Assembly: GCF_010730575.1 (NCBI RefSeq)
Contig: NZ_AP022614.1
Location: 434,001-498,000, forward strand
Reading direction: 5' to 3'
Source of the DNA: Mycobacterium parmense
Lineage (GTDB): Bacteria > Actinomycetota > Actinomycetes > Mycobacteriales > Mycobacteriaceae
DNA: 64,000 bases
In this document: in pieces, positions 22,926 to 38,064 of the stretch
Numbering within the stretch: the stretch's first letter is position 1
Layout: each line of letters opens with the position of its first letter
Program-made: the position numbers and the translations under genes
The notes under the pieces: model-generated
Told to the model about the DNA's origin: nothing
What the model saw: the letters and a program-made list of their open reading frames with translations, nothing else
The model's database searches: none

Positions 22926-23023
22926 GCCCCACGCGCCGAACGTGGTCGCCGCGTACCTTGGCCGTCGGAATTCGTGCACCGCGCCCACACTCGGCCGGCA
23001 ACCGCCGGCTACCGGCGTGCTGT

Positions 23024-23042
23024 AAGGTAAGGCGAGCTAACT
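23024..23042. promoter_or_regulatory. Weak iron-box-like half site upstream of the BASS gene
   Basis: TAAGGTAAGGCGAGCTAAC matches the left 11 positions of the IdeR consensus TWAGGTWAGSCTWACCTWA exactly, but the right half is degenerate (14 of 19 overall). It lies about 50 bp upstream of the BASS start. Speculative. Confidence 0.25.
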
Positions 23043-23090
23043 ATTTGGTGCATCGTCGCGCCGCCGCCTCCGACGACCCCGTGGAGTTCG

Positions 23091-23990
23091 ATGAACAACA
23101 GTTATTTCCCCGTGGTCGTCGCGGTGGTCATGCTCGCCCTCGGGCTGACGCTGACCGTCGACGACTTCCGCCGGGCGGCCACGCTGCGGCGGCCCCTGGC
23201 CGTCGCGCTGCTCTGCCAGGCCGTGCTGTTGCCCATCTGCTGTCTGCTGATCGCCGAGGCCTTCCACTTGCCGCCGCCGCTGGCGGTCGGGCTGATGCTC
23301 ATGGCCGCCACCCCGGGCGGGACGATGGCGAACATACTCAGTCACCTCGTCAATGGGGACCTCGCGATAAACCTCACGCTGACCGCCATCAATGCGGTGT
23401 TGTCGATCGTCTCCATACCGGCGATCCTGGCGATCTCGATGACCTGGTTCCTCGGGGAAGGGCGCTTCATTCCGCTGCAGGTCGACAAGTTCGCCGGCGT
23501 GTTCGGTCTGGTGCTGATCCCCACGGCGATCGGCATCGCCGTGCGCCATCGCTTCCCGGAGTCGGCCGCGCGGCTGCAAAGGCCGGTCCGCGTCATCGCT
23601 CTGGCCCTGCTGGTGCTCGCGATCGTTGCCGCCATCGCCGGCGGAAAGTCCACCCTGTACGCCAACTTCGGTGTGCTGGCCGGCGCCGTCGTGAGCTTCT
23701 GTGCCGTCGCCCTGACGGTCGGCTACCTGGCGGCCAGGACGATGCGGCTCGGTCCGCCGCAGGCCATCGCCGTCAGCCTGGAGATCGGAATGCACAACGC
23801 CGTGGTCGCCATGGGAATCGCGCTGAGCCCGCAACTGCTCAACAGCGCCGAAATGGCCACCCCCGCAGCGGTCTACGGGGGGCTCGCACCGCTGGTCGCC
23901 CTGGCGTTCGTCTTCGGCGTGCGTCGCATCGACCCCGCGCACCGGCGGATGCCACGCCGGGAAGCCGCCGTGGACGAAGCCCCCGCCTAG
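23091..23990 (+). CDS. Bile acid:sodium symporter (BASS) family transporter
   Basis: A 299-residue membrane protein with about nine to ten hydrophobic helices. The BASS/ASBT crossover signature [12 protein letters not shown] is near residue 75, and [12 protein letters not shown] marks the second core repeat. Family members move organic anions with sodium. The natural substrate is unknown (bile acids, pantoate or keto acids are known for relatives). It occupies the place where bkd genes are expected, and its 3' end overlaps the convergent enoyl-CoA hydratase gene by 4 bp. Confidence 0.9.
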
Positions 23991-24757
23991 CGGCGCTGCG
24001 CCGCAGCCAATCTGCTTGCGAACTCCGGTGATTGGATCGAGTGGGCCTGTGGCCCCAGCTCGGTGCGCATGGCGAAGTCGTGTTGCTCGTCGTCCCGAGA
24101 TCCCGGGCTGACGGTGGCGCGCATCGTGGCCTTGGTCGCCAGCACCACCTCGCGAGGAGCCGCCGCCGGCCCTGCGGCCAGTTGCAACGCCGCGGCGACC
24201 GGATCGTCGGCGACCTCGAGCGCCAAGCCGTGGCGCACGGCAGCTTCGGCGTCGAAGCGCATGCCGAACAGCAGTGCCGCGCGGGCCGCCTGCGGACCAA
24301 CCGCCCGCTGCAGCATCCAGGTGGCGCCCCCGCCGGGGTGCAGTCCCAGCTTCTGGAAGCGTGCATCGAACAGCGCGGCCGGCCCCGCGATGCGCACGTC
24401 GGCGGCCAGCGCCAGATTCAGGCCCGCCCCGACGGCGGCGCCGTTGACCGCGGCGATGGTCGGCAGGCGGCAGCTCCCGAGCGCCATGAAGCCGTCGTAC
24501 AGTCGCTGCAGCCCCGTCGCCGCCGCCCCGCTGCCCGCGTCGCCCAACGCGCCGAGGTCAGCGCCCGCGCAGAACGCCTTCCCCGCGCCGGTGACCACCA
24601 CCGCGTGCACATCAGAGTTCGCCTCGGCCTCTTCGACGGCGGCGCGCAGCAGCGCCGACATCTCGGCGGTAACCGCGTTGCGCCGCTCGGGGTCGTTGAC
24701 AGTGATGAGCGCGACGTGGTTGTCGACTGTCTGCAGGACGAGTTCGGAGCGGGACAT
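23987..24757 (-). CDS. Enoyl-CoA hydratase/isomerase family protein
   Basis: A 256-residue crotonase-fold protein. ATG 24757 was chosen over 24784 because GGAGG lies seven bases upstream. The oxyanion-hole segment A-F-C-A-G-A-D-L is at about residues 60-67, and [13 protein letters not shown] carries the second backbone site. The second catalytic Glu of classical hydratases is replaced in the [10 protein letters not shown] stretch, where a His-Pro-Gly stands, so the reaction may not be simple hydration. Length and position suggest an EchA14-type protein, but this is not certain. Confidence 0.9.
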
Positions 24758-24849
24758 CGGGAACCTCCGCGTTTCCAGAGTCACTGGCGGTTACGGCGGC
24801 AACGGTACGCGGCGCCCGCGGGCCCGATGTCGGGGCACGGGTCGCCGCG

Positions 24850-25587
24850 TCAAGCCGATTGCCGTGGAGCCGCGGCGGCGGGTTGGCCCGCGCGCCGGGC
24901 GGCCGCCTCGTCACTGCGGACAATGAATCGGCGAAGCAAGGCGACTGCTGCCGCGATGGACACGACGAGAAGCGTCGGGCCGACCGCGACGATGAGGATC
25001 TGCGAGATGTCCACCGGCAGCGTGAAGATCCAGAACAGCGCGACGAAAGGGAAAAGACCGCAGAGGATTCCGAGCCGCACGCACAGCCTGGTGTGCAGGC
25101 CGTGCCATTCTCGAATGTCCTGCTGCGTCCAGCCTCGGCCGGGCAAAGCCCCATCGGCGAGGCTGGGGATCATCGCGCCGGTGAGCTTCTTGGACGTCGG
25201 CCGGCGCACCAGCCCGCTGATCGCGGTGGAGTAGACGAACAGCGACGCGGGGATGAGCTCGAGGGCCTGAACCAGGCGGGGGTTCTTCGTGACGAGCGCG
25301 ATGGCCAGCGAACACGCCGCGCCGACGATCATCAATCCGTTGACGGGCTCGAACTTGCGCTTGCGCAGCATATTGAAGACGCCTTGCGCCGTACCGGTGG
25401 CGATCGCGCCGACCAGTGCCAAATACGGCGGCACGCCGAACAAGCGGAGCCCGTAATAGCCGACAATCGGCGGTACGGAGTTGATCAGCGTGTAGTTGAC
25501 ATATTCGCGCATGCTCCGGGGAGCGTCGATGCTGGTTTCCCCGGTTGCCGCGGGCTCGTCGTCGGGGGCTGCGCTGTGCTGGGGCAT
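24850..25587 (-). CDS. VC0807-like integral membrane protein
   Basis: A 245-residue membrane protein with six or so hydrophobic helices. It starts with I-N-S-V-P-P-I-V-G-Y-Y-G-L-R-L, has a basic loop (R-K-R-K-F-E-P), and ends with V-A-V-G-P-T-L-L-V-V-S-I-A-A-A-V. I assign it to the VC0807-like group of unknown function by this pattern. Its start codon lies just downstream of an iron-box-like palindrome, which hints at iron regulation. The Ala/Pro-rich N-terminus and tail are probably cytoplasmic and unstructured. Confidence 0.7.
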   Translation of the reverse strand: MPQHSAAPDDEPAATGETSIDAPRSMREYVNYTLINSVPPIVGYYGLRLFGVPPYLALVGAIATGTAQGVFNMLRKRKFEPVNGLMIVGAACSLAIALVTKNPRLVQALELIPASLFVYSTAISGLVRRPTSKKLTGAMIPSLADGALPGRGWTQQDIREWHGLHTRLCVRLGILCGLFPFVALFWIFTLPVDISQILIVAVGPTLLVVSIAAAVALLRRFIVRSDEAAARRAGQPAAAAPRQSA

Positions 25588-25596
25588 GAACTGAGC

Positions 25597-25615
25597 TTAG
25601 CCTAGGCTAATTTTG
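25597..25615. promoter_or_regulatory. Candidate IdeR iron box
   Basis: TTAGCCTAGGCTAATTTTG matches TWAGGTWAGSCTWACCTWA at 14 of 19 positions and contains the perfect 14-bp palindrome TTAGCCTAGGCTAA. It sits 10-28 bp upstream of the ATG at 25587, where IdeR binding would block the membrane-protein gene under iron-replete conditions. Confidence 0.5.
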
Positions 25616-25669
25616 AAATGAGCGCCGGCCGTTGCGAAGCGCACGTTGCCGAGGCCGCGAGCTGAGCGG

Positions 25670-26890
25670 CTACACGACGGGGTTGCGGGCCGCCGAAAAG
25701 CGTTCGAGCTGCATGGGCGGTCCGCCCGCGGGCGGCGGTGGGACGACGCTGGCTACCCCGTCCATCACCGTGACAACTGTCGAGGTGTGCCGTTCGAAAT
25801 TCAGGGTGCCGTGCTGGAAGTTCTGCACGACCCATTCCGGCTCGTCGATCTCGGCGCTGGTCGGCAGGCCCAGCGGGCCGCGCTCGTAGCGCAGCGTGGC
25901 CCAGGCTTCGTAGATCCGCCCGGTGAGCGGTTGGGCGCCGGTGGCCGGTGACCAGTAGATCGCGCCGTTGGCGAACACGACGTAGCGGATGGAGTCACCG
26001 CTGGGCGCCTCGGGCGACGTGGGTGCGCCGAGCGGGCCCGACGCGCCCCCCATCGCCTGCCAGCGGTCGTAGATCGCTCCGCCCTGCAGTGACGGCGCGA
26101 AATCCCTTGTGCTGGGCGGTTGCTTGAACTGGGCGGCGATGTCGCGGATCTGGTCCATGAATGCATACCCGGCGTTGCCGGGGCAGGCCGTATCGCCGAC
26201 GTCACGATGGGCGAAGATGCTCGGCAAGGTCGGGGTGGCTCCTTGCGGAAAACGGGTGTTGGGGCCGCCGGCGGAAGTCAGAGCGACGGTGCCCCTGGGG
26301 TTCACCATGTCCATCGCGAGCCGCCATCCCAGCAACTCGCCGACCGCCCGCAACTGGTCCGGGGTGGGGGGCGCCTGGCTGTAGTCACCGATCATGCACA
26401 CCGCCCAGGTGTTGGCGTTGAAGCCGCCGGTGTGGACGCCCTCGACGGGGTTGGTGATGCCACCGAACCTGCCCTCGAAGACCTGGCCGTACTTGTCCAC
26501 CAACGCGTTGTAACCGATGTCGCCCCAACCCTCGGTCACGGCGTGGTACTCGTAGATCGAGCGCACGATGGCCGCCGAGTCTGACGGCGCGTAGTTGTTG
26601 CCGGTCGCGGAGTGGTGCACGATTCCGGCCCTGACTCCGCTGTCGCAGCGCGGCAAGGCGCGCCGCAGCGACTCATTGGCGCCCCACCTGGCGCGGCTGA
26701 TGATCTCGACCGGCTGGCTCGCCGCCATCGCCGCCGCCGATACGTTGGGATCCGCGGGTGCCGGTGCCGGCCCTAAGAGCACATCGGCGGCCATCCCCAA
26801 GCCGAGGGCAACCGGTGCGGCCGCAACATATTTCAGCACAGCACGCCGGGAGGCCCGAGGTGGCGCTCCGCAGCCGCAGCGATGTTGCAC
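25670..26890 (-). CDS. Tat-exported N-acetylmuramoyl-L-alanine amidase with LGFP repeats
   Basis: A 406-residue secreted peptidoglycan hydrolase. From GTG 26890 the N-terminus carries a twin-arginine signal (S-R-R-A-V-L-K followed by a hydrophobic stretch). The amidase-2/PGRP domain covers about residues 50-240. Zinc ligands are visible in I-V-H-H-S-A-T and in F-A-H-R-D-V-G-D-T-A-C-P-G. Two LGFP-type repeats follow (G-A-S-G-P-L-G-A-P and R-G-P-L-G-L-P), which anchor corynebacterial-type proteins to the envelope. No Shine-Dalgarno is seen, so leaderless initiation is possible. The frame stays open upstream to 27319 but that part is not protein-like. Confidence 0.85.
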   Translation of the reverse strand: MQHRCGCGAPPRASRRAVLKYVAAAPVALGLGMAADVLLGPAPAPADPNVSAAAMAASQPVEIISRARWGANESLRRALPRCDSGVRAGIVHHSATGNNYAPSDSAAIVRSIYEYHAVTEGWGDIGYNALVDKYGQVFEGRFGGITNPVEGVHTGGFNANTWAVCMIGDYSQAPPTPDQLRAVGELLGWRLAMDMVNPRGTVALTSAGGPNTRFPQGATPTLPSIFAHRDVGDTACPGNAGYAFMDQIRDIAAQFKQPPSTRDFAPSLQGGAIYDRWQAMGGASGPLGAPTSPEAPSGDSIRYVVFANGAIYWSPATGAQPLTGRIYEAWATLRYERGPLGLPTSAEIDEPEWVVQNFQHGTLNFERHTSTVVTVMDGVASVVPPPPAGGPPMQLERFSAARNPVV

Positions 26891-26893
26891 CGC

Positions 26894-26911
26894 GACACGG
26901 TAACCCGTGTC
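26894..26911. promoter_or_regulatory. Perfect inverted repeat before the amidase gene
   Basis: GACACGGTAACCCGTGTC has 7-bp perfect arms and a 4-bp spacer, and ends three bases upstream of the chosen GTG. It could be an operator or a translational hairpin. Confidence 0.4.
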
Positions 26912-27413
26912 CGGCCGAATGAAGAGTCGCCGCGCCGTTACCGAAAAGAATGGAGCTCGTGGCCATTTCGATTCCGGAACCTCCGGTACGTCCTGTGTGG
27001 ACCGCCACCGCGGCCAAACCGGCTTGCAGCGCCCTCGCTGAAGCCGGGGATCGGTCCGCGGATCGACTTCGCAGAGGCGGCGCCCGCGGTCCACGCACCG
27101 CATCGTTTTCAACCGTTTTCCCGGTCGGGGACACGGACGGCCGCACTGCGCCGGCGGCGACTCGCGGCCCGCGACGGCCCGCCCTGACCGGGACACATCC
27201 AAAGCATCTGTCAGACAGCGCAATTCGGCCTTACGACTAGAGAACACGTGATCGGCGGTGGCCTGACCTGCTAAAGCCAGACCACCCGGGGCTATTTCTG
27301 CCGTGCCCACCCAGAACATCAGACCGTTGCGTTATCCCAGAAGTGGGTAAACAACGCGGTAACGCGGGCCGCACGGGTCTGGCGTGAGGTCACTGATCGA
27401 AAGGCGGCATCAG
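26912..27413. other. Divergent intergenic region, no convincing gene
   Basis: About 500 bp between the divergent amidase and acidic-repeat genes. Open frames here are Arg/Pro-rich shadows without ribosome sites. It presumably carries promoters for both genes; none could be assigned. Confidence 0.4.
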
Positions 27414-27734
27414 ATGGTTCGTCATGAAGGGGGCCGGTGGGACGTCGGTATCGAGAGCGACGCGGTCCACGTGGAGCGCATCTCCGAGAGCGACGAGCGC
27501 TTGTTCGACGATTCGCTGGCACCGCAGGAGGCTCGCCAACTCGCCGGGCTCCTGACGAAATTCGCGGACAAGCTCGACGAGTCCCTCGACGCCAAGGGAT
27601 CCGAGGACAACTCCGACGGGTCTGAGGATGCCGAAAAGTCCGACGACGCCGAGGACTCCAAGGATTCCGAAAAGTCCGAGGATGCCAAGGACTCCAAAGA
27701 CGGCGAGGACTCCGACAAGTCCCCCGACAGCTAG
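27414..27734 (+). CDS. Small protein with acidic Ser/Asp/Glu/Lys repeat tail
   Basis: A 106-residue protein from ATG 27414, with GAAAGG upstream. The first ~60 residues are a compact alpha/beta segment (W-D-V-G-I-E-S-D-A-V-H-V-E-R, then A-R-Q-L-A-G-L-L-T-K-F-A-D-K-L). The last ~45 residues are low complexity, repeating S-E-D, S-D-D and K-D-S units (for example S-E-K-S-E-D-A-K-D-S-K-D). The tail is highly acidic and surely disordered. I do not recognise the family. It may bind cations or basic partners, but this is speculation. Confidence 0.75.
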   Translation: MVRHEGGRWDVGIESDAVHVERISESDERLFDDSLAPQEARQLAGLLTKFADKLDESLDAKGSEDNSDGSEDAEKSDDAEDSKDSEKSEDAKDSKDGEDSDKSPDS

Positions 27735-28134
27735 GCGCGTCAGCGAGAGACCCGGCGGTCGGCGCCGTCCCCGTGTCCCGGGCTGCCGATCGTCGGCGAG
27801 TCGCTGATCGTCTGTCAAGTCATACCGAACGAATGGAACACGCCGGTGCCGGCGCCGCGACGCGTATCGGGTCCGTCGTCTATGTTGGAAGAAGAAGCCG
27901 TCGCCTCTCTCGCTGAGGCATTGGGCGACCACGTCAACGAAACGCGCGAATGCGCAGACCTATCGATGGAGCCCACGGATCTGTGAATCCCGTAAGTCAA
28001 TGGGCCCGAAGGAACCGCTGACCGGCTGACCCGCGTTGAGCCGTCGAGGGAAGCGCTGACCCGCCGATGAGTCACCTGCCCGATGGCGCATGAACGCGCG
28101 GTCCCGACAGAGCTGTACGAAGGGGAGAAAACCC
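27735..28134. other. Intergenic region upstream of the desaturase
   Basis: About 400 bp with no convincing gene. A 34-codon frame (ATG 27882 to TGA 27986) is acidic and intact but lacks a clear ribosome site. The desaturase ribosome site AAGGGGAG is at the right end. Confidence 0.4.
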
Positions 28135-29421
28135 ATGGCCATCACCGACGTTCCGGCCTTCGCCCACTTAACCGAAGCCGACATCGAGAGCCTGGCTTTC
28201 GAGCTGGACGCGATTCGCCAGCACGTCGAGGAATCACTCGGCGAGCGTGACGCCCGCTACATCCGCCGTACCATCGCCGCACAACGTGCCCTCGACATCG
28301 CCGGCCGGCTCCTGCTGGCCGGAAGCTCGAAACGGTCGACGTGGTGGGCCGGAACCGTGACCCTTGGCGTGGCAAAGATCATCGAAAATATGGAGATCGG
28401 CCACAACGTCATGCACGGCCAGTGGAACTGGATGAACGACCCCGAGATCCACTCCTCGACGTGGGAGTGGGACATGAGTGCGGCGTCCAAACACTGGATT
28501 GCCGCCCACAACTTCCAGCATCACAAGTACACCAACATCCTCGATATGGACGACGACGTCGGCTACTTCATCCTGCGAGTCACCCGTGATCAGCCGTGGG
28601 CGGGCTACAACGCCGCCAACCTGCTGTTCAACGCGATCCTCGCGCTCGGGTTCGAGTGGGGCATCGGCTTGCAGACCGTCGACCTCGAGAAGGCGGTCAA
28701 GGCCGGCCCTGAGCGCGACATCAACCGGCAGCGCACCCGTGAATTCTCCGTGAAGGCCGGCCGGCAGCTGTTCAAGGACTACGTCGCGTTCCCGGCGCTG
28801 ACCGCGCTGTCGCCCGGCGCGACGTACACGTCGACGCTGAAGGCCAACGTCGTCGCCAACGCGATCCGCAACGTGTGGGCCAACGCGGTGATCTTCTGCG
28901 GGCATTTCCCCGACGGCGCAGAGAAATTCACGAAGACCGACATGGTCGGCGAGACCAAGGGCCAGTGGTACCTGCGTCAGATGCTGGGCAGCGCCAACTT
29001 CGAGGCCGGCCCCGCGCTGCGGTTCATGAGCGGCAACCTCTGCCACCAGATCGAACACCACCTGTTTCCCGATCTGCCGAGCAACCGGCTGCACGAGGTT
29101 TCGGGGCGGGTGCGAGCGCTGTGCGACAAGTACGACTTGCCCTACACCACAGGCTCTTTCCTGATGCAGTACGGCAAGACGTGGCGCACCATCGCCAAGT
29201 TGTCGTTGCCGAACAAATACCTGCGCGACACCCCTGACAACGCGCCGGAAACCCGCAGCGAGCTCATGTTCACCGAACTGGGGTCGGGATTTGCTGAGAC
29301 CGACCCGACGACCGGGCGGCGCCGCGGGCTCAAAACGGCGATCGGCACCGTCCGGCAGTGGCGCCGCGCCGGAGGCCAGAGCCGGCCGAGGCCGCGAATC
29401 AAGACGGGGCGTCGGGGATAG
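28135..29421 (+). CDS. Membrane fatty acid desaturase, DesA3-like
   Basis: A 428-residue acyl-CoA desaturase. The three histidine boxes of membrane di-iron desaturases are present: H-N-V-M-H, H-N-F-Q-H-H and H-Q-I-E-H-H. Two hydrophobic hairpins separate them. ATG 28135 follows AGGGGAG at eight bases. M. tuberculosis DesA3 (stearoyl-CoA delta-9 desaturase, about 427 residues) has the same length and boxes, so oleate formation is the likely role. An electron donor (oxidoreductase such as Rv3230c) is not encoded nearby, so it must use a partner elsewhere. The Arg-rich C-terminal tail is longer than the catalytic core requires. Confidence 0.9.
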   Translation: MAITDVPAFAHLTEADIESLAFELDAIRQHVEESLGERDARYIRRTIAAQRALDIAGRLLLAGSSKRSTWWAGTVTLGVAKIIENMEIGHNVMHGQWNWMNDPEIHSSTWEWDMSAASKHWIAAHNFQHHKYTNILDMDDDVGYFILRVTRDQPWAGYNAANLLFNAILALGFEWGIGLQTVDLEKAVKAGPERDINRQRTREFSVKAGRQLFKDYVAFPALTALSPGATYTSTLKANVVANAIRNVWANAVIFCGHFPDGAEKFTKTDMVGETKGQWYLRQMLGSANFEAGPALRFMSGNLCHQIEHHLFPDLPSNRLHEVSGRVRALCDKYDLPYTTGSFLMQYGKTWRTIAKLSLPNKYLRDTPDNAPETRSELMFTELGSGFAETDPTTGRRRGLKTAIGTVRQWRRAGGQSRPRPRIKTGRRG

Positions 29422-29526
29422 TTCGCCGACCGGCCGCCCCGCTGAGCGACCGCCAAACAAAGCCTTCCTTCCGAATGCTCGCGGGATGTACGTTCCTCCT
29501 GTGGGGCGTCTCGACGAGGGGAAGCG

Positions 29527-31125
29527 ATGAACTTTTCGGTATGGCCGCCTGAAGTCAATTCGGTTCTGCTGCTCGACGGTCCGGGTTCGGAGCCGATGCT
29601 GGCCGCGGCGGCGGCATGGGAGCGGATAAGCACTGAACTGAGCTCGACGGCGAGCGCCTTCAGTTCGGTCACCGCAGACCTGGCGGGCCAGGCCTGGCAA
29701 GGGCCGGCGTCGGCGTCCATGACGTCCGCGGCCGCAGGGTACGCCGACTGGCTGGGGGAGGCCGCCGCGCAAGCCGGGCAGTCGGCGGTCCAGGCCCGCG
29801 CGGCGGCCACCGCGTTCGAGTCGGCGCTGGCGACGATCGTCGACCCGAACCTGGTGACGGCCAATCGCGACCGGCTGGTGGCGCTTGTGCGATCCGACCT
29901 CTTCGGTCAGAACGCCCAGGCGATCGCCGCCGCCGAAGCCGAATACGAGCAGATGTGGGCGCAGGACGTCGTCGCGATGAGCGGGTATCACGCCAGCGCG
30001 TCGGCCACCGTCGCACAACTGGGCCAGTGGGAGCAGGCGCTGCAGAGCAGCGTCGGAACCGTCGAACTCGGCATTCAGCAGGCCGCCGGGATAATCACCG
30101 GCGGATACACCCGGGTGACCGACACCATCCTCAACGGCATCTTCGGACTTCGAGCCGATGCGCCGTTCGCCGCCACCCAGGCGGGCACCTTCACCGGCAC
30201 CCCGTCGGTGTTCACCAGGGTCGAAGAGGCCGTGCTGTTCCCGGTCAAGCCGTTCCTGAGCTTCTCCGGAATCGACAGCCTGGCAGGCAGCCCGAGTTCC
30301 CCGATCTTCTCGCTCTTCAACGGCAACAACCGGCTACTCGGGATTTTCATCGGCAACACGCCACCCCAGTTGTTGCCGGCACTGCTCGGAGAAACGATCC
30401 AGCACACCACCTACAACGGGATGCCCGTCGTCCAGATCACTCCCGCCCACCCGACCGGCAACTACGTCGTCGCCATTCACGGAGGCGCGTTCATCTTCGC
30501 GCCCTCGATCTTCCACTGGCTCGACTACACGGTGATGGCCTACCAGACCGGCGCGACCATCGAAGTGCCGATCTACCCGCTGCTGCAGCAGGGAGGCACC
30601 GCGGGCACCGTGGTGCCCCAGATGGCCGGGTTCATCTCCTCGGAGATCGCCGCTCAAGGGGCCGCCCACGTCAGCGTGATCGGTGACTCCGCGGGCGGCA
30701 ACCTCGCGCTGGCGGCCACCGAATACATGGTCGCCAACGGTGAACCCGTGCCTTCGTCCATGGTTCTGCTTTCCCCGTGGCTGAACCTGGCGATGACCAA
30801 CCCGAACATCGCCTACGTCCAAGACCCCCTGCTGCCTGTGGGTCCAGGGCAAGTGATCGGCAGGCTGTGGGCCGGCGGGCTTCCCGTGAGCAACTACATG
30901 GTGAGCCCGCTCAACGGGTCGCTCAGCGGACTCCCGCAGACCACCGTCTACTCCGGCAACCTGGATTCGCTATCGCCCGACGTGCTTGTGCTACAGCAGG
31001 AAGCCGCGACCGCCGGGGCCAACTTCAACTTCGTCCTGGGCAACGGCGAGATTCACGACTGGATCATCCTCACCCCCGATGGCCCCCAATACTGGCCGCA
31101 GATCGACCAGGAGCTCGGAATCTGA
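29527..31125 (+). CDS. PPE-domain alpha/beta-hydrolase (LipY-like esterase)
   Basis: A 532-residue fusion. Residues 1-180 form a PPE domain with W-P-P-E at residues 6-9 and the WxG turn (A-W-Q-G-P-A-S). A linker of about 110 residues follows. From about residue 300 there is a hormone-sensitive-lipase-type hydrolase. Its oxyanion motif is H-G-G-A-F near 318, the nucleophile elbow is G-D-S-A-G-G near 388, and an Asp (G-N-L-D-S-L) and His (G-E-I-H-D-W) complete the triad. ESX export followed by lipid ester hydrolysis at the cell surface is expected. PE- and PPE-fused LipY enzymes are known, and this may be one or a paralogue. No chaperone or PE partner is adjacent. Confidence 0.88.
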   Translation: MNFSVWPPEVNSVLLLDGPGSEPMLAAAAAWERISTELSSTASAFSSVTADLAGQAWQGPASASMTSAAAGYADWLGEAAAQAGQSAVQARAAATAFESALATIVDPNLVTANRDRLVALVRSDLFGQNAQAIAAAEAEYEQMWAQDVVAMSGYHASASATVAQLGQWEQALQSSVGTVELGIQQAAGIITGGYTRVTDTILNGIFGLRADAPFAATQAGTFTGTPSVFTRVEEAVLFPVKPFLSFSGIDSLAGSPSSPIFSLFNGNNRLLGIFIGNTPPQLLPALLGETIQHTTYNGMPVVQITPAHPTGNYVVAIHGGAFIFAPSIFHWLDYTVMAYQTGATIEVPIYPLLQQGGTAGTVVPQMAGFISSEIAAQGAAHVSVIGDSAGGNLALAATEYMVANGEPVPSSMVLLSPWLNLAMTNPNIAYVQDPLLPVGPGQVIGRLWAGGLPVSNYMVSPLNGSLSGLPQTTVYSGNLDSLSPDVLVLQQEAATAGANFNFVLGNGEIHDWIILTPDGPQYWPQIDQELGI

Positions 31126-31148
31126 CCGGGTGGCCGCGACGATTGCCA

Positions 31149-31908
31149 TCACCGGGTTTCTCGACGACGCAAATCATCGGTGGCCGCGCGGTGCAGAAAG
31201 CCGGCGAATGCCGACGCGGTGTCGATGTCCGCCATGCCGTCCATGAACAAGAACTGTCCCTGGGGATTGACCTCGAGGAAGACGGGCTCGTCACCGGCGA
31301 GCTTGAGGTCGAAGACGCCCATTCGAAGATTCAAGATCGCGAGCACCGTCTGCATCCGCTTGACCGTCGCGGCATCGATTTCGAGGGGTTGCGCTTCGAG
31401 GTCCAGATTAGGCCGCCAGTCCAGCTGATCGGACCTGACGGCGATCGCGTGGACGTCGTCGCCGGCGCACAGGACACGAAGATGGCGGTCGCCCGGAATG
31501 AGTTCTTGAAACATAGTGGGACACAGGCGGATCGCTGCGTCCTCTTCCACATGGTGGTCTTCGACTCGAATCGTGAGCAGTGGCTGGCGTGGGTCGAAAG
31601 TCAGGGCCTTCATGACGACCGCCCCGTTGCCCAGCTCGCGACAGAAGCGTCGAATCGCCTCTGGGTCCTGCGAAACAAGAGTGCGTGGCACCCTCATCCC
31701 TGCTCTGATCGCCGCGCGAAGCTGCACCAACTTGTTCTCGGCGCGCTTGCTCGATGACGGCTCGCTGATCCATGTTCCGCCGAAGGACGTTTCGAGTATG
31801 CCCAACAGCGCCGCCGCGCTGCTTCTGTCGATGAAGTTCCGCTGGTGGCGATCGCCGACGTTGAGACCCCACTGAGGCATGTTCGTGCGCCGAAACCACA
31901 GTGCATTG
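31149..31908 (-). pseudogene. Graspetide-type ATP-grasp ligase, C-terminal part cut off by an IS
   Basis: This segment encodes the larger, C-terminal part of an MvdC/MvdD-like ATP-grasp peptide ligase. It begins with L-W-F-R-R-T-N and continues with A-E-N-K-L-V-Q-L-R-A-A-I, a V-P-R-T-L-V segment, the grasp lysine region A-V-V-M-K-A-L, and the metal-binding end F-D-L-K-L...F-L-E-V-N-P-Q-G-Q. A start at ATG 31880 could in principle make a truncated protein lacking about 85 residues. Together with 33336-33570 it forms one uninterrupted 987-bp gene (328 residues) once the IS and one 8-bp duplication are removed. It lies downstream of the precursor gene on the same strand. Confidence 0.85.
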
Positions 31909-31935
31909 GGTCAAGTCCAGGGACGTGGTGTACGA
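31909..31935. repeat. Left terminal inverted repeat of the IS
   Basis: The first 27 bases of the IS pair imperfectly with the reverse complement of 33309-33335. They share TCCAG and then GTGGTGTACGA, with 16 of the inner 20 positions matching. GTGCATTG at 31901-31908 immediately outside is the target duplication. Confidence 0.75.
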
Positions 31936-31965
31936 CGTCGTTGTGTGATTCTTCGTCGTGATGTG

Positions 31966-33201
31966 TCAGGCGGTCAGCGCCGCCGGGGTGTCCTCCTGTT
32001 CTGTTGGGGTGTCGTTGACCGCGCGTGATTTGCTCAGCACGTCGAGGCCGAGGTAGCGCCGGGACTCGGCCCATTCGTCGTGTTGTTCGGCCAGCACGGC
32101 GCCGACGAGACGAATGAGGGCGTTGCGGTCGGGGAAGATCCCGACGACGTCGGTGCGTCGGCGGATCTCCTTGTTGAGCCGCTCCTGGGGGTTGTTGGAC
32201 CAGATCTGCCGCCAGATCTGTTTGGGGAACGCCGTGAACGCAAGCAGGTCCGCTCGCGCGGCCTCAAGGTGTTCAGCTGTCTTAGGCAGCTTTCCATCTA
32301 ACGCGTCAATCACCCGATCATATTGGGCGGCAACGGAGTCCGCGTCGGGCTGATCGAACACCGAGTGCAGCAGGGTCTTGACCCACGGCCAGGACGCCTT
32401 GGGTGTGACGGCCATGAGATTGGTCGTGTAGTGGGTGCGGCAGCGCTGCCACGATGCGCCCGGCAGGGTCGCGCCGATCGCGGCGACCAGTCCGGCATGC
32501 GCGTCGGAAGTCACCAGCTTCACGCCTGAGAGGCCGCGGGCTGTCAGCGAGCGCAGGAACGTCAGCCAGCCAGCACCGTCCTCGGCTGTGGTGACATCGA
32601 CCCCGAGGATCTCGCGGTAACCGTCGGCGTTCACCCCGACGGCGATCAAGGCGTGCACGTTGACCACCCGCCCACCTTCGCGAACCTTGAGCACCAGGGC
32701 ATCGGCGGCCATGAAGGTGTACGGACCGGCATCCAACGGGCGGGTCCGGAAGGCTTCGACGGCCGCGTCGAGCTCCGTGGCCATCACCGACACCTGCGAC
32801 TTCGACAACGACGTGATTCCCAGAGTCTCGACGAGCTTGTCCATCCGCCGCGTCGACACCCCCAGCAGGTAGCAGGTGGCCACCACGGTGGTCAGGGCCC
32901 GTTCGGCGCGTTTACGGCGTTCCAGCAGCCAATCCGGGAAGTACGAGCCATGGCGCAGCTTGGGGATCGCCAGGTCCAAACTGCCTGCACGCGTGTCGAA
33001 CTGGCGGTGACGATAGCCGTTGCGCTGATTGGTGCGCTCGGAACTGCGCTGCCCGTAGCCGGCGCCGCACAGCGCGTCTGCTTCGGCGCCCATCAGGGTG
33101 TGGATGAACGTGGCCAGCAGCTCACGCAACACATCCGGGCTGGTGGTGGTGAGTCGATCAGCCAGCACGGCGGGCCAGTCGATATCGTGGGCAGTGGTCA
33201 T
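31966..33201 (-). CDS. IS256-family (Mutator-type) transposase
   Basis: A 411-residue DDE transposase closely resembling the IS1081 transposase (415 residues) in length and motif order: G-A-E-A-D-A-L-C-G-A-G-Y near the start, then the R-N-G-Y-R-H-R region. Catalytic Asp residues lie in A-A-D-A-L-V-L-K and T-S-D-A-H-A-G-L, and the Glu in N-N-P-Q-E-R-L-N. ATG 33201 follows AAAGGA at nine bases; an upstream in-frame start at 33270 is less likely. The gene is intact, so the element may still be active. Confidence 0.93.
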   Translation of the reverse strand: MTTAHDIDWPAVLADRLTTTSPDVLRELLATFIHTLMGAEADALCGAGYGQRSSERTNQRNGYRHRQFDTRAGSLDLAIPKLRHGSYFPDWLLERRKRAERALTTVVATCYLLGVSTRRMDKLVETLGITSLSKSQVSVMATELDAAVEAFRTRPLDAGPYTFMAADALVLKVREGGRVVNVHALIAVGVNADGYREILGVDVTTAEDGAGWLTFLRSLTARGLSGVKLVTSDAHAGLVAAIGATLPGASWQRCRTHYTTNLMAVTPKASWPWVKTLLHSVFDQPDADSVAAQYDRVIDALDGKLPKTAEHLEAARADLLAFTAFPKQIWRQIWSNNPQERLNKEIRRRTDVVGIFPDRNALIRLVGAVLAEQHDEWAESRRYLGLDVLSKSRAVNDTPTEQEDTPAALTA

Positions 33202-33308
33202 CGCGTCGATTCCTTTGCTCGAGTGACTTTGGTCGGTCTCTCGAAGAATCACGCGATGACCTTCATTCATTCGGCTACGACACGCCGGACATCCTGATCA
33301 GGCCCGAC

Positions 33309-33335
33309 TCGTACACCACTCTGCTGGACGCAACT
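33309..33335. repeat. Right terminal inverted repeat of the IS
   Basis: It is the partner of 31909-31935 in inverted orientation. GTGCATTG at 33336-33343 is the second copy of the 8-bp target duplication. Confidence 0.75.
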
Positions 33336-33570
33336 GTGCATTGACGTCGGCAAGCTTGACGGTGCCGTCATCGGCTGTGGGGAGCTCAGTCGCCGGCTCG
33401 GCATCTGACCGCCATGTCACACCCGGCCCGGAGACGGTCATCGTGTTTGTTTCGACGATGACGCACGTCCCGTTGGTCAGGTCGTGGTAGCGCCGTTGGA
33501 TCACCAAAGCGTGAAGATCGTTCGCGGATGTGACGATGAGGACAACTGGTCGTTGTGATTGATCGATCAC
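33336..33570 (-). pseudogene. Graspetide-type ATP-grasp ligase, N-terminal part
   Basis: From GTG 33570 the frame reads V-I-D-Q-S-Q-R-P-V-V-L-I-V-T-S, the Rossmann-like first strand usual at the start of MvdC/MvdD-type ligases, and continues to K-L-A-D-V-N-A, where the IS begins. It joins in frame to 31149-31900. As it stands this part can only give a truncated peptide that runs into IS sequence and lacks the ATP-binding domain. It starts 32 bp after the precursor stop, so both were one operon. Confidence 0.82.
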
Positions 33571-33602
33571 CTGGATGATTGCGCAGCCCGTGGGGACGGT
33601 GC

Positions 33603-33863
33603 TTAAACGTCCACGTCCACGATGTCCCAATCGCAGTCGTCATCCCCGGCGCCCGGCGAGATCGACGTCGTTTCGACGCCAGTAGGGACGTCGGGCGACT
33701 TCTTCCGGATTTCTGCGAACTTGCCGATTCCTACAAGATTTTTCATGTTCTCTTCCCACTCGACCAGCTTCTGGCCCTTCGCGACGACGAATTTCGTGGG
33801 TTGAAACATGAAAATCAGCGGAACGCCGGTGATCTCTTCTTCGGTCTCGGTATCGTCGGCCAC
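33603..33863 (-). CDS. Candidate graspetide (ATP-grasp-modified RiPP) precursor peptide
   Basis: An 86-residue peptide from GTG 33863, with AAAGGGAG upstream. An acidic N-terminus is followed by a leader containing P-L-I-F-M-F-Q-P-T-K-F-V-V-A and a helix (V-E-W-E-E-N-M-K-N-L). The C-terminus has hydroxyl donors T-T-S-I-S, then P-G-A-G, then an Asp-rich tail D-D-D-C-D-W-D-I-V-D-V-D-V. Hydroxyl side chains facing acidic side chains are exactly what ATP-grasp ligases join as ester crosslinks in graspedites such as microviridin and plesiocin. The ligase gene follows directly. That this is the substrate is inferred from position and composition; I do not recognise the core as a described class. 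Confidence 0.7.
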   Translation of the reverse strand: MADDTETEEEITGVPLIFMFQPTKFVVAKGQKLVEWEENMKNLVGIGKFAEIRKKSPDVPTGVETTSISPGAGDDDCDWDIVDVDV

Positions 33864-34357
33864 CGCGCACTCCCTTTGACGAAGCCTGCTTCCGTGTGCG
33901 CTCATCATTGCGCAGATAAAACGACTTCCGCAACGCCAACACGGGCCACGTGATCCGTTGCTTCCCGGACGCCGCCCAGACCGGTGCGGCTTCTTTGTCG
34001 CCGGGTTTGCCCTGATAAGACTGGACAAATGGCCCGCGACGGTTCGCATAGACCGCCGAGGAGGTGACGGCGTTGTCCTCGGTTACGCGCATCGTCAGCA
34101 ACGCGATGAGAGCGCGGGATCACCCCACCTAAACCAGCCAGGCGCACCCCAACCTCGCCTCGCGGCCGTGGGCGCCATCTGGATGGCAACGAACAGCGTT
34201 ACCGCGCGGTGCTTCGTGAATGCGCTATCGCGTGTGCTAGCGCCTTTAGCAAAGACGTTCGGGTCGCGCCGTAGTTCGGAAAGGTCTCAGGTGGCGCGGA
34301 GCTCCGCGGCCGGGAGGGCGAACCGACCGCCACAACTTTCGAACGTCAGCCCACCTG
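33864..34357. other. Region upstream of the RiPP cassette, no convincing gene
   Basis: About 490 bp. Open frames on both strands end in tRNA sequence or lack ribosome sites and recognisable motifs. The promoter of the precursor gene should lie at the left end of this stretch. Confidence 0.4.
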
Positions 34358-34403
34358 ACACGGACAGAGTGCCCCCGGCACGACTCGAACGTGCGACCTA
34401 GGG
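34358..34403 (-). repeat. Truncated tRNA-Arg(TCT) 3' half, att-like
   Basis: These 46 bases are identical, in the same orientation, to 34960-35005, the 3' half of the intact tRNA-Arg plus 12 bases of flank. Identity stops in the anticodon stem. The enclosed interval is only 556 bp and holds another tRNA fragment and a transposase remnant. Confidence 0.8.
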
Positions 34404-34413
34404 GTTCTTGATA

Positions 34414-34463
34414 GTGCGCCATCAGCGTCTCGAACCCTCGGGACCCGCTGATTAAGAGTCAGC
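34414..34463 (-). repeat. Diverged tRNA-Lys-like 3' half
   Basis: About 50 bases resemble 8408-8457, the 3' half of tRNA-Lys(CTT), with roughly five differences including a small insertion in the T arm. The anticodon-loop region CCCGCTGATTAAGAGTCAGC is kept exactly. The 5' half is missing, so it cannot be a tRNA gene. It begins 10 bp after the tRNA-Arg fragment. Confidence 0.7.
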
Positions 34464-34557
34464 GGCTTCGAGCGGCGACTGATTGCTGCACGTGGATACG
34501 TGCAGCGCCAGAGCGCAGCGAATGGGGTCGTTCGTTCATATTGTTTTGTGGATTGGC

Positions 34558-34856
34558 TACCCTGCGCTTGACCAGCTCGAACACCAGCCGCCGCGGCCCC
34601 CAATACGGACGCGAGCGGCGCAACTCCACCACCGCCGCTTCCACCTCAGCCCGCATCTGATGCGGACACCGGGCCGGCCGATGCGACCGATCCACCAGCC
34701 CGTCTAAACCCTCGGCCCCATAGCGGGGCCAACCACCGGTGCAGCGTCTGACGCGCCACCCCCGGTCTTTGCGGCCGCCTGCGACACCGACAACCCATCA
34801 CCAATCACCGCCAACAAGGCCTGATACCGCTGCTCAGCCACGCTCAACTCCCTCAT
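34558..34856 (-). pseudogene. IS481-type transposase N-terminal remnant
   Basis: From ATG 34856 the frame reads M-R-E-L-S-V-A-E-Q-R-Y-Q-A-L-L, a helix-turn-helix start. Two one-base insertions (in runs of G and of C) shift the frame before R-Q-T-L-H-R-W-L-A and before R-Y-G-A-E-G-L-D-G-L. It then continues V-D-R-S-H-R-P-A-R-C and W-G-P-R-R-L-V-F-E-L, typical of IS481 transposases. Homology stops near 34558 and the catalytic DDE domain is missing. It is a dead fragment, about 100 codons. Confidence 0.75.
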
Positions 34857-34864
34857 CTAGGGAG

Positions 34865-34955
34865 TGTCAAGGATCAACCGAAACCGCTGTAAAGGATCAG
34901 CCGAAACACTGTCAGGCATCACCCGGAACTGAAATGTCAAGCATCAGCCGACGTC
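34865..34955. repeat. Four tandem ~21-bp repeats, IS-end-like
   Basis: Copies start at 34865, 34888, 34910 and 34935. The consensus is TGTCAAGSATCARCCGAAAC, with two to five differences per copy. They lie directly upstream of the transposase remnant, where an IS481-type terminal inverted repeat would be. They are therefore probably nested IS ends or transposase-binding sites. Confidence 0.6.
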
Positions 34956-34971
34956 ATACACACGGACAGAG

Positions 34972-35045
34972 TGCCCCCGGCACGACTCGAACGTGCGACC
35001 TAGGGATTAGAAGGCCCTTGCTCTATCCACCTGAGCTACGGAGGC
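34972..35045 (-). tRNA. tRNA-Arg (anticodon TCT)
   Basis: A 74-base cloverleaf on the minus strand. The acceptor GCCTCCG pairs with CGGGGGC (one G-T pair). The anticodon loop is CTTCTAA, giving TCT, which reads AGA. The T arm contains CGTTCGAGT and the discriminator is A. CCA is not encoded. The 3' half is duplicated at 34358-34403. Confidence 0.96.
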
Positions 35046-35235
35046 AATGCGCTGGTCAGTCTATCGAACCGCTCCGGGGCGGCGGATTCGTGCGACGCGA
35101 CGCGCACGAAAAGTGTTTGCACAGCTTAAAAATCGGCTATGGTAAGCAACCTCGACACACGTACAACAGAATCGGCTGTACATTGGCCGTTAACCGCAAC
35201 GATGCGTGTGCATAACGTCGAGGGGTGACGTTGCT

Positions 35236-36483
35236 ATGAGCGTGGCCATGAACGTGACTGCGCGGTGCTCGCGGGCGGGTGCTCAGGCGCTGAGGCTGAC
35301 GGTCGATGCCCGCAACACCTGCAGAGCGGGCGCCCTGCTGCTGCGCGGCTCGCCGTTCGCGGCGGGTTGGTTCGCCGGCTGGCTGATGACCGAATTCCCG
35401 CCGCACGTGGTGACCGGCCACGCGCTGTCACGGTTATCGCACCCGTCGATCGGCCGGGTCGCCAGTACGTGGGCGGGCCAGAAGGCGGACGAGGCCCTCA
35501 GCGCCGCGCTGGAGGAGTCCCTCGGCCCGGACTTCCGCGACCACGTGTGCCATCCCGAACGCGTCCACGCGGCGTCCGCAGCCCGGGCCAACCGCCGGCA
35601 GCGGTCCGGGCCGCACCGTCGGTACGCGGGGGAGACGTCGGACATCTCCTACGGCCCCGGCGGCCGCGACAACCTGCTCGACATCTGGCGGCGCCACGAC
35701 CTGGCCCCGGGCTGCCGCGCGCCGGTGCTGATTCAGGTCCCGGGCGGGGCGTGGGCGGTCGGGGACAAGCGAGTGCAGGCCTACACGCTGATGAGCCGGA
35801 TGGCCGAGCTGGGCTGGATCTGCGTCTCGATCAACTACTGCAAGAGCCCGCGCCGAACCTTTCCGGCGCACCTCGTCGACGTGAAGAGGGCGATCGCGTG
35901 GGTCCGGGAGAACATCGCCGACTACGGCGGCGACCCCGACTTCATCGCGATCACCGGTGGGTCGGCCGGCGCGCATCTGGCGTCGTTGGCCGCACTCACG
36001 CCGAACGACCCCAAGTTTCAGCCCGGGTTCGAACACGCCGACACGACGGTTCAGGCGGCGGCGCTGTATTACGGCGTCTACGACTTCACCGACTTCGACA
36101 ACATGAACGACCTGATGCTGCCCTTCCTGGAACAGTTCGTCATCAAGGCCCGCTACGCCGATGATCCCGAGCGATTCCGGGCGGCGTCGCCGATCTCCTA
36201 TGTGCACAGCGAAGCCCCGCCTTTCCTCGTGCTGCACGGCGAGAAGGACGAACTGGTGCCCAGCGGGCAGTCGCGGGAGTTCTGCGCGGCGCTGCGCGCG
36301 GCGGGTGCGCCGACGGTGGGATACGCCGAGCTTGCCAACGCGCATCACGCTTTCGACATCACCCCCACGGTGCGGTCGCGTCTGGCCGCGGATGCGGTCG
36401 CCGATTTCATGGGCGTCGCCTACGGGCGCCGCGTCAGCTCGCTGCTCGATTCGTTGCCGCTGTCGGCAACTTCCGCCGGCTGA
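35236..36483 (+). CDS. lipQ: Carboxylesterase LipQ-like
   Basis: A 415-residue alpha/beta-hydrolase of the hormone-sensitive-lipase branch. The oxyanion region is V-P-G-G-A-W instead of the usual H-G-G. The nucleophile elbow is T-G-G-S-A-G-A-H, the acid lies in H-G-E-K-D-E-L-V-P, and the catalytic His is in N-A-H-H-A-F-D. The first ~130 residues are helical and partly hydrophobic, a feature of the mycobacterial LipQ group. By position next to the WS/DGAT gene it corresponds to Rv2485c. ATG 35236 is a reasonable start; the substrate is unknown. Confidence 0.83.
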   Translation: MSVAMNVTARCSRAGAQALRLTVDARNTCRAGALLLRGSPFAAGWFAGWLMTEFPPHVVTGHALSRLSHPSIGRVASTWAGQKADEALSAALEESLGPDFRDHVCHPERVHAASAARANRRQRSGPHRRYAGETSDISYGPGGRDNLLDIWRRHDLAPGCRAPVLIQVPGGAWAVGDKRVQAYTLMSRMAELGWICVSINYCKSPRRTFPAHLVDVKRAIAWVRENIADYGGDPDFIAITGGSAGAHLASLAALTPNDPKFQPGFEHADTTVQAAALYYGVYDFTDFDNMNDLMLPFLEQFVIKARYADDPERFRAASPISYVHSEAPPFLVLHGEKDELVPSGQSREFCAALRAAGAPTVGYAELANAHHAFDITPTVRSRLAADAVADFMGVAYGRRVSSLLDSLPLSATSAG

Positions 36484-36594
36484 GTCACTCCTTTCACCCG
36501 CGCGGCTACGCGACTAGCGTTGTGTGTGGTCCGCGGGTCCAAGGCAGGGAGGCTTGATCGACGGTGACAAGGTTGGCGCGTCGAGTAAACGACC

Positions 36595-38064
36595 ATGACT
36601 GAATCCGTTGAGGTCGTCCGATTGTCCGACCAGCTCGGGCCGGTCGACTACCTGATGCATCGCGGTGAGGCGAACCCCCGGACCCGTTCGGGCATCATGG
36701 CGCTGGAAGTGCTTGATACCACACCGGACTGGGAGCGGTTCCGGGCGCGGTTCGAGAACGCCTCCCGACGGGTGCTGCGGTTGCGGCAGAAGGTCGTCGT
36801 GCCGACATTGCCGACGGCGTCGCCGCGCTGGGTGGTGGATCCCGACTTCAATCTGGACTTCCACGTGCGACGCGTGCGGGTGTCGGATCCGGGCACGCTG
36901 CGTGAGGTCTTCGACCTGGCGGAGCTGATCCTGCAATCGCCGATGGACATCTCCCGCCCGCTGTGGACGGCCACCCTGGTGGAGGGCCTGACCGGCGGCA
37001 AGGCCGCCACCCTGTTGCACGTCAGCCACGCGGTCACCGACGGTGTCGGCGGCGTCGAGATGTTCGCCGAGATCTATGACCTCGAACGGGACCCGCCGGC
37101 CAAACCCGTACCGCCACTGCCCATTCCGCAGGACCTCACCTCCAATGACCTGATGCGCGAGGGCATCAACCACCTGCCCGCCGCCATTGTGGGCGGCGTC
37201 CTGGGCGCCCTGGCCGGGGCGGTGTCGGTCGCCGGACGGGCGGTGCTGGAGCCCGCTTCCACGGTGTCGGGCATCGTGGGCTACGCGCTGTCGGGCATGC
37301 GGGTGATGAACCGGGCTGCCGAACCGTCGCCGCTGCTGCGCCGGCGCAGCCTGGCCACCCGCAGCGAAGCGATCGACATACCGCTGTCCGACCTGCACAA
37401 GGCGGCCAAAGCCGGTGGCGGATCGATCAACGACGCCTACCTCGCCGGACTATGTGGCGCCCTGCGCCGCTATCACGAGGCGCTTGGCGTGCCAATCAGC
37501 ACGCTGCCGATGGCGGTGCCGGTGAACCTGCGCGCCGACGCGGACACCGCCGGCGGCAACCGGTTCACCGGCGTGAACCTGGCGGCGCCGATCGGCACCG
37601 TCGACCCGGTGTCGCGGATGAAGAAGATCCGCGCGCAGATGACCCAGCGCCGCGACGAGCCCGCGATGAACATCGTCGGCTCGATCGCGCCGGTGCTCAG
37701 CGTCTTGCCGACCGCCGTCCTCGAGGGCATCACCGGCTCGGTGATCGGCTCCGACGTTCAGGCCAGCAACGTCCCCGTGTACCCCGGAGACACCTACATC
37801 GCCGGGGCAAAAGTGCTGCGGCAGTATGGGATCGGACCGCTTCCGGGTGTGGCGATGATGGTGGTGTTGATCTCGCGGGGCGGGTGGTGCACCATCACCG
37901 TGCGCTACGACCGGGCGTCGGTGCGCAACGAGCCGTTGTTCGCGCAGTGCCTGCTCGACGGTTTCGACGAGATCCTCGCGCTGGCCGGCGACCCACCGCC
38001 CCGCGCCGTGCCCGCCTCCTTCGCCGAACCGGTCGCCGCGCCCCGATCGGTGTCCGGATCATGA
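36595..38064 (+). CDS. Wax ester synthase/diacylglycerol acyltransferase (WS/DGAT)
   Basis: A 489-residue acyltransferase of the Tgs/WS-DGAT family (Rv2484c position), which uses acyl-CoA to make triacylglycerol or wax esters. The active-site motif HHxxxDG appears here as S-H-A-V-T-D-G (residues 144-150). The catalytic second His and the Asp are kept, but the first His is Ser. The conserved P-L-W region (R-P-L-W-T-A-T) is at about residue 121, and V-P-V-N-L-R near 305 is typical. It overlaps plsC by 4 bp, so storage-lipid and phospholipid acyltransfer are co-expressed. Confidence 0.92.
   Translation: MTESVEVVRLSDQLGPVDYLMHRGEANPRTRSGIMALEVLDTTPDWERFRARFENASRRVLRLRQKVVVPTLPTASPRWVVDPDFNLDFHVRRVRVSDPGTLREVFDLAELILQSPMDISRPLWTATLVEGLTGGKAATLLHVSHAVTDGVGGVEMFAEIYDLERDPPAKPVPPLPIPQDLTSNDLMREGINHLPAAIVGGVLGALAGAVSVAGRAVLEPASTVSGIVGYALSGMRVMNRAAEPSPLLRRRSLATRSEAIDIPLSDLHKAAKAGGGSINDAYLAGLCGALRRYHEALGVPISTLPMAVPVNLRADADTAGGNRFTGVNLAAPIGTVDPVSRMKKIRAQMTQRRDEPAMNIVGSIAPVLSVLPTAVLEGITGSVIGSDVQASNVPVYPGDTYIAGAKVLRQYGIGPLPGVAMMVVLISRGGWCTITVRYDRASVRNEPLFAQCLLDGFDEILALAGDPPPRAVPASFAEPVAAPRSVSGS

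What the first reader, a model, noticed from the sequence alone, without database searches (positions are those of the whole stretch)
31149..33863. Candidate graspetide (ATP-grasp RiPP) cassette split by an insertion sequence
A precursor-like peptide gene (33603-33863) is followed after 32 bp by an MvdC/MvdD-like ATP-grasp ligase gene. The ligase is split into 33336-33570 and 31149-31908 by an IS. Removing the IS plus one 8-bp duplication restores a 987-bp frame (328 residues, the usual length of these ligases), in frame through V-N-A-L-W-F-R-R. I know of no characterised graspetide from this genus. The strain here has lost the enzyme, but sister strains may have it intact.
Basis: partly seen in the sequence, partly recalled or inferred. 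Interest (0 to 1): 0.9.

Follow-up and report, generated by a model that had tools for sequence, protein, structure and literature searches.

The report
IS-broken graspetide cassette in a mycobacterium
A mycobacterium carries a two-gene kit, a small peptide gene and the enzyme gene that would staple the peptide into rings, but a jumping gene has cut the enzyme gene in two; related uncut kits occur in many other bacteria.

Summary
Confirmed, and the reading is supported. A small ORF (33603-33863, minus) sits 32 bp upstream of an ATP-grasp gene cut in two by an IS256-family element (31909-33335). Searched apart, the pieces match adjacent parts of uncut relatives. The best profile, PDB-sequence and fold matches are graspetide macrocyclases, ahead of RimK and LysX. 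The small ORF has four homologues (64-84%). A wider family, with leader P-h-h-F-x-x-Q-P...L-x-x-W-E and core E-T-x-S...D-D-C/S-D, lies beside the same ligase clade in five phyla; 54 of 54 profile hits fall within 546 bp of a ligase.

The window's copy is most likely dead, and recently so: the IS matches two other copies in the genome at 100%, and 59 of 59 invariant ligase residues covered are kept. No near-identical uncut ligase was found. Three other mycobacteria in 396 genus genomes have uncut but distant pairs in a separate clade.

It is an inactivated new member of a known class. No Pfam or NCBIfam model covered the precursors tested, and the ligase scores fall below curated cut-offs, so the family may be an undescribed graspetide group; published group lists could not be checked.

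The parts
33603..33863 (-). graspetide precursor gene (86 aa): leader with P15-LIF and L33..W36-E37, core E64-T-T-S...D75-D76-C77-D78
33336..33570 (-). N-terminal piece of the ATP-grasp macrocyclase, cut by the IS
31149..31908 (-). C-terminal piece of the ATP-grasp macrocyclase (ATP-grasp domain), open frame kept
31909..33335 (-). IS256-family insertion sequence, 1427 bp, that interrupts the ligase gene
31966..33270 (-). IS256-family transposase, 434 aa
31901..31908 (.). 8-bp direct repeat (target-site duplication), first copy
33336..33343 (.). 8-bp direct repeat (target-site duplication), second copy

Best explanation
This is a minimal two-gene graspetide cassette (precursor plus ATP-grasp macrocyclase) whose macrocyclase has been inactivated by an IS256-family insertion. 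In an uncut cassette the ligase binds the leader (P-L-I-F-M-F-Q-P...K-L-x-E-W-E) of the 86-aa precursor. It then uses ATP to phosphorylate Asp side chains in the C-terminal core. The acyl phosphates react with upstream Thr/Ser hydroxyls and form macrolactones, each costing 18 Da. In the window's family the fully conserved candidates are donors T65, T66 and S67 and acceptors D75, D76 and D78, possibly with E64. Shown here: gene content, homology, predicted fold of a full-length relative, co-conservation of precursor and ligase, and the interruption. Inferred: the chemistry, the number and pattern of rings, export and bioactivity, and the loss of function in this strain.
For: Ligase: C-piece TIGR04187 1e-36, MvdC 4e-33, MvdD 9e-27; PDB sequence matches MdnB, MdnC, AMdnB, CdnC, PruB and PsnB before RimK-like proteins; the full-length relative P0010 gives the same families, and its model (pLDDT 86.2) lies closest to MdnC, AMdnB, PsnB, PruB, MdnB and CdnC. 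Precursor: 4 homologues besides itself; T65, T66, S67, D75, D76 and D78 are invariant in 5 of 5 sequences, its own included. Association: the iterated precursor profile hit 54 of 9067 ORFs, in 50 of 80 named ligase loci and 0 of the 20 unnamed-genome loci in the same ORF set (one of these 20 is the window's own C-piece locus, which stops short of the precursor); 54 of 54 hits lie within 546 bp of the ligase, 51 upstream on its strand, whereas 861 of 8431 ORFs in the 80 loci lie within 550 bp. Interruption. Retention: 55 of 55 and 4 of 4 invariant positions covered are kept in the C- and N-piece.
Against: No chemistry was tested. The full-length relative P0010 reaches only 142.8 bits with TIGR04187 (cut-off 350) and 21.6 with PF21068 (cut-off 27); the C-piece's Pfam matches are weak and generic (GSH-S_ATP 0.0021, RimK 0.0024, both under cut-off), and the N-piece has none. 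30 of 80 ligase loci gave no precursor hit: 23 are the more distant loci L059-L081 (31-36% identity, 21 of them Nocardia); of the other 7, L017, L019 and L045 have a precursor-like ORF just over my 200-aa filter and L005 a divergent one, while L022, L044 and L052 have none or only a doubtful one. The hits are related to each other and so not independent. The three flanking genes scanned are an amidase, a desaturase and a PPE-hydrolase, with no transporter or obvious leader protease. P0004/P0009 and P0007/P0010 are taken to share contigs only because the contig lengths agree. The window's ligase branch is longer than its sister's (0.10 against 0.015), which may mean relaxed constraint.
Confidence: 0.88

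Rival explanations
1. The ATP-grasp gene is an amino-acid or peptide ligase of RimK/LysX type acting on a protein tail, and the small ORF is its carrier protein (LysW-like) rather than a RiPP precursor.
Against: Macrocyclases win in profile, PDB sequence and fold. Thr/Ser and Asp of the tail are conserved together in 5 of 5 sequences, and core sequences vary between subgroups while the leader pattern stays, as expected for RiPP precursors.
Confidence: 0.05
2. The cassette is a graspetide system that still works here, because the two ligase pieces assemble as a split enzyme.
For: Both pieces keep open frames and all invariant residues covered.
Against: The N-piece runs into IS sequence after about 78 residues; the C-piece would need a new start inside the gene and lacks the N-terminal domain; the IS matches two other copies at 100%, so there has been little time to adapt.
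Confidence: 0.04
3. The small ORF has a separate role (regulator or partner protein of the ligase) and the true substrate lies elsewhere.
For: Partner-protein-dependent graspetide synthetases exist (PMC13097080, abstract, passages and sections 7 and 8 seen).
Against: Apart from precursors the neighbour search showed only an ABC exporter recurring in one branch; the C-terminal Thr/Ser...Asp pattern is that of a core peptide; some loci carry two such ORFs (L002, L006, L051) or two leader-core units in one ORF (L041, L043, L050), as multi-core precursors do.
Confidence: 0.06

Closest known systems
Microviridin synthetases MdnB/MdnC and precursor MdnA
   Different: 25-27% identity (model of P0010); leader P-L-I-F-M-F-Q-P...W-E, not the PFFARFL reported for microviridins (PMC8939145 section 5); one ligase instead of two (recalled); no Lys in the core by inspection
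TgmB-type actinobacterial graspetide synthetases (TIGR04187, SAV_5884 subfamily; the name TgmB is recalled)
   Same: Best NCBIfam match of the C-piece and of P0010, matched by 21 of 21 clade members scanned
   Different: 142.8 bits for P0010 against a curated cut-off of 350; precursors match no Pfam or NCBIfam model above cut-off
Rosaritide (group 21, Micromonospora rosaria)
   Same: TIGR04187-type synthetase; three Ser/Thr donors linked to Asp22, Asp24 and Asp26 (PMC13097080 section 8), much like T-T-S...D-D-C-D here
   Different: Needs a PPIase-like partner protein and has a PCAT exporter; none among the three flanking genes scanned here, though these families were not searched for by name
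Fuscimiditide (ThfA/ThfB; graspimiditides, group 13)
   Same: Ester-cross-linked stem-loop graspetide
   Different: Leader recognition motif RPFG and a PIMT-like methyltransferase (PMC13003496 and PMC12291112 passages); RPFG is absent from the window's precursor by inspection; a PIMT was not searched for
Uncut pairs in M. aquaticum, Mycobacterium sp. 141 and sp. 852013-50091 (L030, L034, L027)
   Same: Same precursor family and related ligase
   Different: 39-41% ligase identity to P0010; precursor gene downstream of the ligase, on the opposite strand in two of three; different core; separate clade

Membership tests
Graspetide (ATP-grasp macrocyclised RiPP) | ATP-grasp macrocyclase of the MdnB/MdnC/PsnB type | tested here: met
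Graspetide (ATP-grasp macrocyclised RiPP) | Adjacent small precursor gene conserved together with the ligase | tested here: met
Graspetide (ATP-grasp macrocyclised RiPP) | Leader with Pro followed by two hydrophobic residues (the Phhx(1,2)h motif of PMC8939145, found there in about 50% of precursors) | tested here: met
   P15-L16-I17-F18 invariant in 5 of 5 sequences; Pro in 20 of 20 rows of A4
Graspetide (ATP-grasp macrocyclised RiPP) | Core with conserved hydroxyl donors and acidic acceptors | tested here: met
   a loose DDCD-like pattern in the last 45 residues of 43 of 54 profile hits
Graspetide (ATP-grasp macrocyclised RiPP) | Side-chain ester or amide macrocycles (-18 Da each) | not testable with these tools
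   needs expression and mass spectrometry
Graspetide (ATP-grasp macrocyclised RiPP) | Uncut macrocyclase gene in this genome | tested here: not met
   Split by the IS; a profile search of the own genome gave only the two pieces at E 1e-15 or better, 5 of 32 first-look candidates being scored
TIGR04187 SAV_5884 subfamily | Curated score of at least 350 bits | tested here: not met
   126.8 for the C-piece, 142.8 for full-length P0010
MvdC/MvdD equivalogs | Curated scores of at least 425 / 475 bits | tested here: not met
   140.6 / 115.9 for P0010
RimK / LysX amino-acid ligases | Curated score of at least 143.4 (rimK_fam) or 275.6 bits (LysX_arch) | tested here: not met
   45.6 / 28.4 for the C-piece; 36.2 / 20.3 for P0010
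IS256-family insertion sequence | IS256 transposase, terminal inverted repeats, 8-9 bp target duplication (last two recalled) | tested here: met

The most novel reading that the evidence does not exclude
The precursor family, with leader P-h-h-F-x-x-Q-P...L-x-x-W-E and core E-T-x-S...D-D-C/S-D found beside one ligase clade in five phyla, is a graspetide group that nobody has described. Its frequent core Cys, and the Cys-rich cores of its Streptomyces branch, take part in the chemistry through thioester cross-links or metal binding.
Probability: 0.1. Interest if true: 0.72.

Novelty: new member of a known kind. Interest (0 to 1): 0.4.

Why it matters
It places a graspetide cassette in a PPE-bearing mycobacterium, suggests that the pair was gained horizontally and then lost by a recent IS insertion, and exposes a leader-core family without Pfam or NCBIfam models that can be mined and expressed from harmless bacteria. 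It does not change what is known about how graspetides are made.

Tried and rejected
A PF21068 search of the own genome rang nowhere, controls included, so it was uninformative. Precursor searches of sampled genomes found only the own copy: 1 of 301 family genomes with the single sequence and 1 of 396 phylum genomes with the 5-row profile; three further mycobacterial pairs lie outside what those samples or queries reached. The 33570-34000 stretch has no plasmid match. No tandem repeats in 30000-36000. The search for other genes recurring around the ligase was muddied by spurious antisense ORFs in GC-rich DNA; apart from precursors it showed an ABC exporter overlapping or following the ligase end in the Actinomadura-Thermomonospora-Nonomuraea-Microbispora branch (Pfam run on one of them, L015).

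Literature. 37 papers hold 'graspetide' (31 listed); 9 hold it with 'mycobacteri' (6 listed); 4 hold ATP-grasp, RiPP, precursor peptide and mycobacteri; of these I saw listings only, apart from the papers named next. PMC8939145: abstract, passages, section 5, parts 1 and 2 of 3 of section 6. PMC13097080: abstract, passages, sections 7 and 8. PMC9576775: passages. PMC12291112 and PMC13003496: passages. The first three have no 'mycobacteri' in their main texts. No paper in the library holds GWDDCD; one search was a further listing. The two group-defining papers (Ramesh 2021, Lee 2020) are not held and no supplement was read, so I cannot say whether this family already has a published group number.

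Full report
WHAT IS THERE. The window lies in a 5,952,912-base single-contig genome. Genomes of its own genus hold precursors identical to those of records titled Mycobacterium aquaticum, Mycobacterium sp. 141 and sp. 852013-50091, so the genus is Mycobacterium in the broad sense; the species was not identified. On the minus strand an 86-aa ORF (33603-33863, GTG start, AAAGGGAG at 33870-33877 by eye) is followed after 32 bp by the first part of a ligase gene (33336-33570). An IS256-family element (31909-33335) comes next, then the rest of the ligase (31149-31908). The IS has a 434-aa transposase (IS256 model 330.6 bits, cut-off 150), 21-nt inverted ends that are 81% complementary and a flanking 8-bp direct repeat. 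Three copies at 100% (this one included) and four at 85% stand in the genome, so it is or recently was mobile. Full-length relatives of 84.6-86.0% are in the 7 mycobacterial plasmid records among the 8 listed of 46.

THE PRECURSOR. Besides itself, four homologues (64-84%) were found in 5.8 billion proteins. The linker of their alignment varies, while the leader block (G-V-P-L-I-F-M-F-Q-P-T...K-x-K-L-x-E-W-E-E) and the core (E-T-T-S...P-G-x-G-x-D-D-C-D) are fixed. One genome-contig scan with the ligase alignment gave 80 loci, the best of 215. An iterated precursor profile, seeded with these five and two Kribbella ORFs, hit 54 of 9067 ORFs (35-200 aa) in 50 loci. All 54 lie within 546 bp of the ligase, 51 upstream on its strand and 3 downstream, the three being the mycobacterial ones. 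For comparison 861 of 8431 ORFs in the 80 loci lie within 550 bp. The hits are related to each other, so they are not 54 independent events. Of the 30 loci without a hit, 23 (L059-L081, 21 of them Nocardia) hold more distant ligases (31-36%). L017, L019 and L045 have a precursor-like unit in an ORF just over my length filter and L005 has a divergent one. L022, L044 and L052 have none or a doubtful one. In 20 aligned precursors from several phyla, Pro of the leader is invariant, and Leu, Trp-Glu, Gly and two core Asp are nearly so. A profile search found 44 proteins; those with a source name shown are called hypothetical or uncharacterized, and none has a precomputed Pfam domain. The window's precursor and seven others had no Pfam or NCBIfam family above cut-off.

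HOW IT WORKS. By analogy with characterised graspetides (PMC13097080 sections 7 and 8, PMC12291112 and PMC13003496 passages, PMC8939145 section 5), the ligase binds the leader, phosphorylates core Asp residues, and the acyl phosphates are caught by Thr/Ser hydroxyls as macrolactones. Rosaritide, with Ser8, Ser9 and Thr11 linked to Asp22, Asp26 and Asp24, is the nearest pattern I read to T-T-S...D-D-C-D. Ring number and connectivity here are inference. In this strain the ligase is cut, no second copy showed in the own genome at E 1e-15, and the precursor is most likely an orphan.

ORIGIN AND LOSS. Among 396 genus genomes, 8 (the own one included) have a ligase match at 1e-15 or better. Three carry the uncut same-family pair; the other four have ATP-grasp genes without a precursor of this family in the stretch held. 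The ligase tree puts the window with P0008, P0009 and P0010 (100/92, 100/99, 100/97) and then with P0012-P0021 and, further out, Kribbella, while the three mycobacterial ligases form a separate starred clade. That argues for separate gains by horizontal transfer, though the hosts of P0008-P0010 are unknown and old duplication with loss is not excluded. Six relatives were read for about 18 kb left of the tRNA-Arg (34.97 kb). In three (L128, L129, L131) the homologue of about 24.77 kb lies only 1.1-2.3 kb from it, in one (L127) 16.8 kb away, and in two (L130, L132) it is not in the stretch. The cassette thus lies in a stretch that varies between species, next to a tRNA. The part around the precursor has the lowest GC of the profile of 22001-38000 (0.576 at 33501-34000).

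VERDICT. The finding is a dead member of a known RiPP class, plus a lead to a leader-core family without curated models. Whether that family already has a group number could not be checked.

Noticed in passing
34371-34403 and 34973-35005: Exact 33-bp copy of the end of tRNA-Arg (34971-35045), the mark of a past tRNA-site integration; transposase-like fragments seem to lie between the copies (by eye only).
   Followed up: partly
29527-31125: PPE protein fused to an alpha/beta hydrolase. In two relatives (L133, L135) the homologue lies next to the homologue of the window's 44.3-45.6 kb stretch, so it seems to have moved.
   Followed up: partly
L041, L043, L045, L050: Two leader-core units in one ORF upstream of the ligase: double precursors in Pseudomonadota.
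   Followed up: no
L005 7730-7939: Chloroflexota ORF with leader PAVFIGQP and two TTLMYPSD repeats, microviridin-like cores beside a ligase of this clade; the microviridin core motif is recalled.
   Followed up: no
L029, L037, L040, L042, L047: Streptomyces-type precursors with Cys-rich cores (SCSCGC..DDCC), unusual for graspetides.
   Followed up: no
L141, L143, L144: Other ATP-grasp proteins in genus genomes, matched with one TGA inside the matched stretch; they carry EVNPMPGYSYFE in place of EVNPQGQFLF.
   Followed up: no
31149-31907: The C-piece has an end branch of 0.10 against 0.015 for its sister P0008, though all invariant residues covered are kept.
   Followed up: partly
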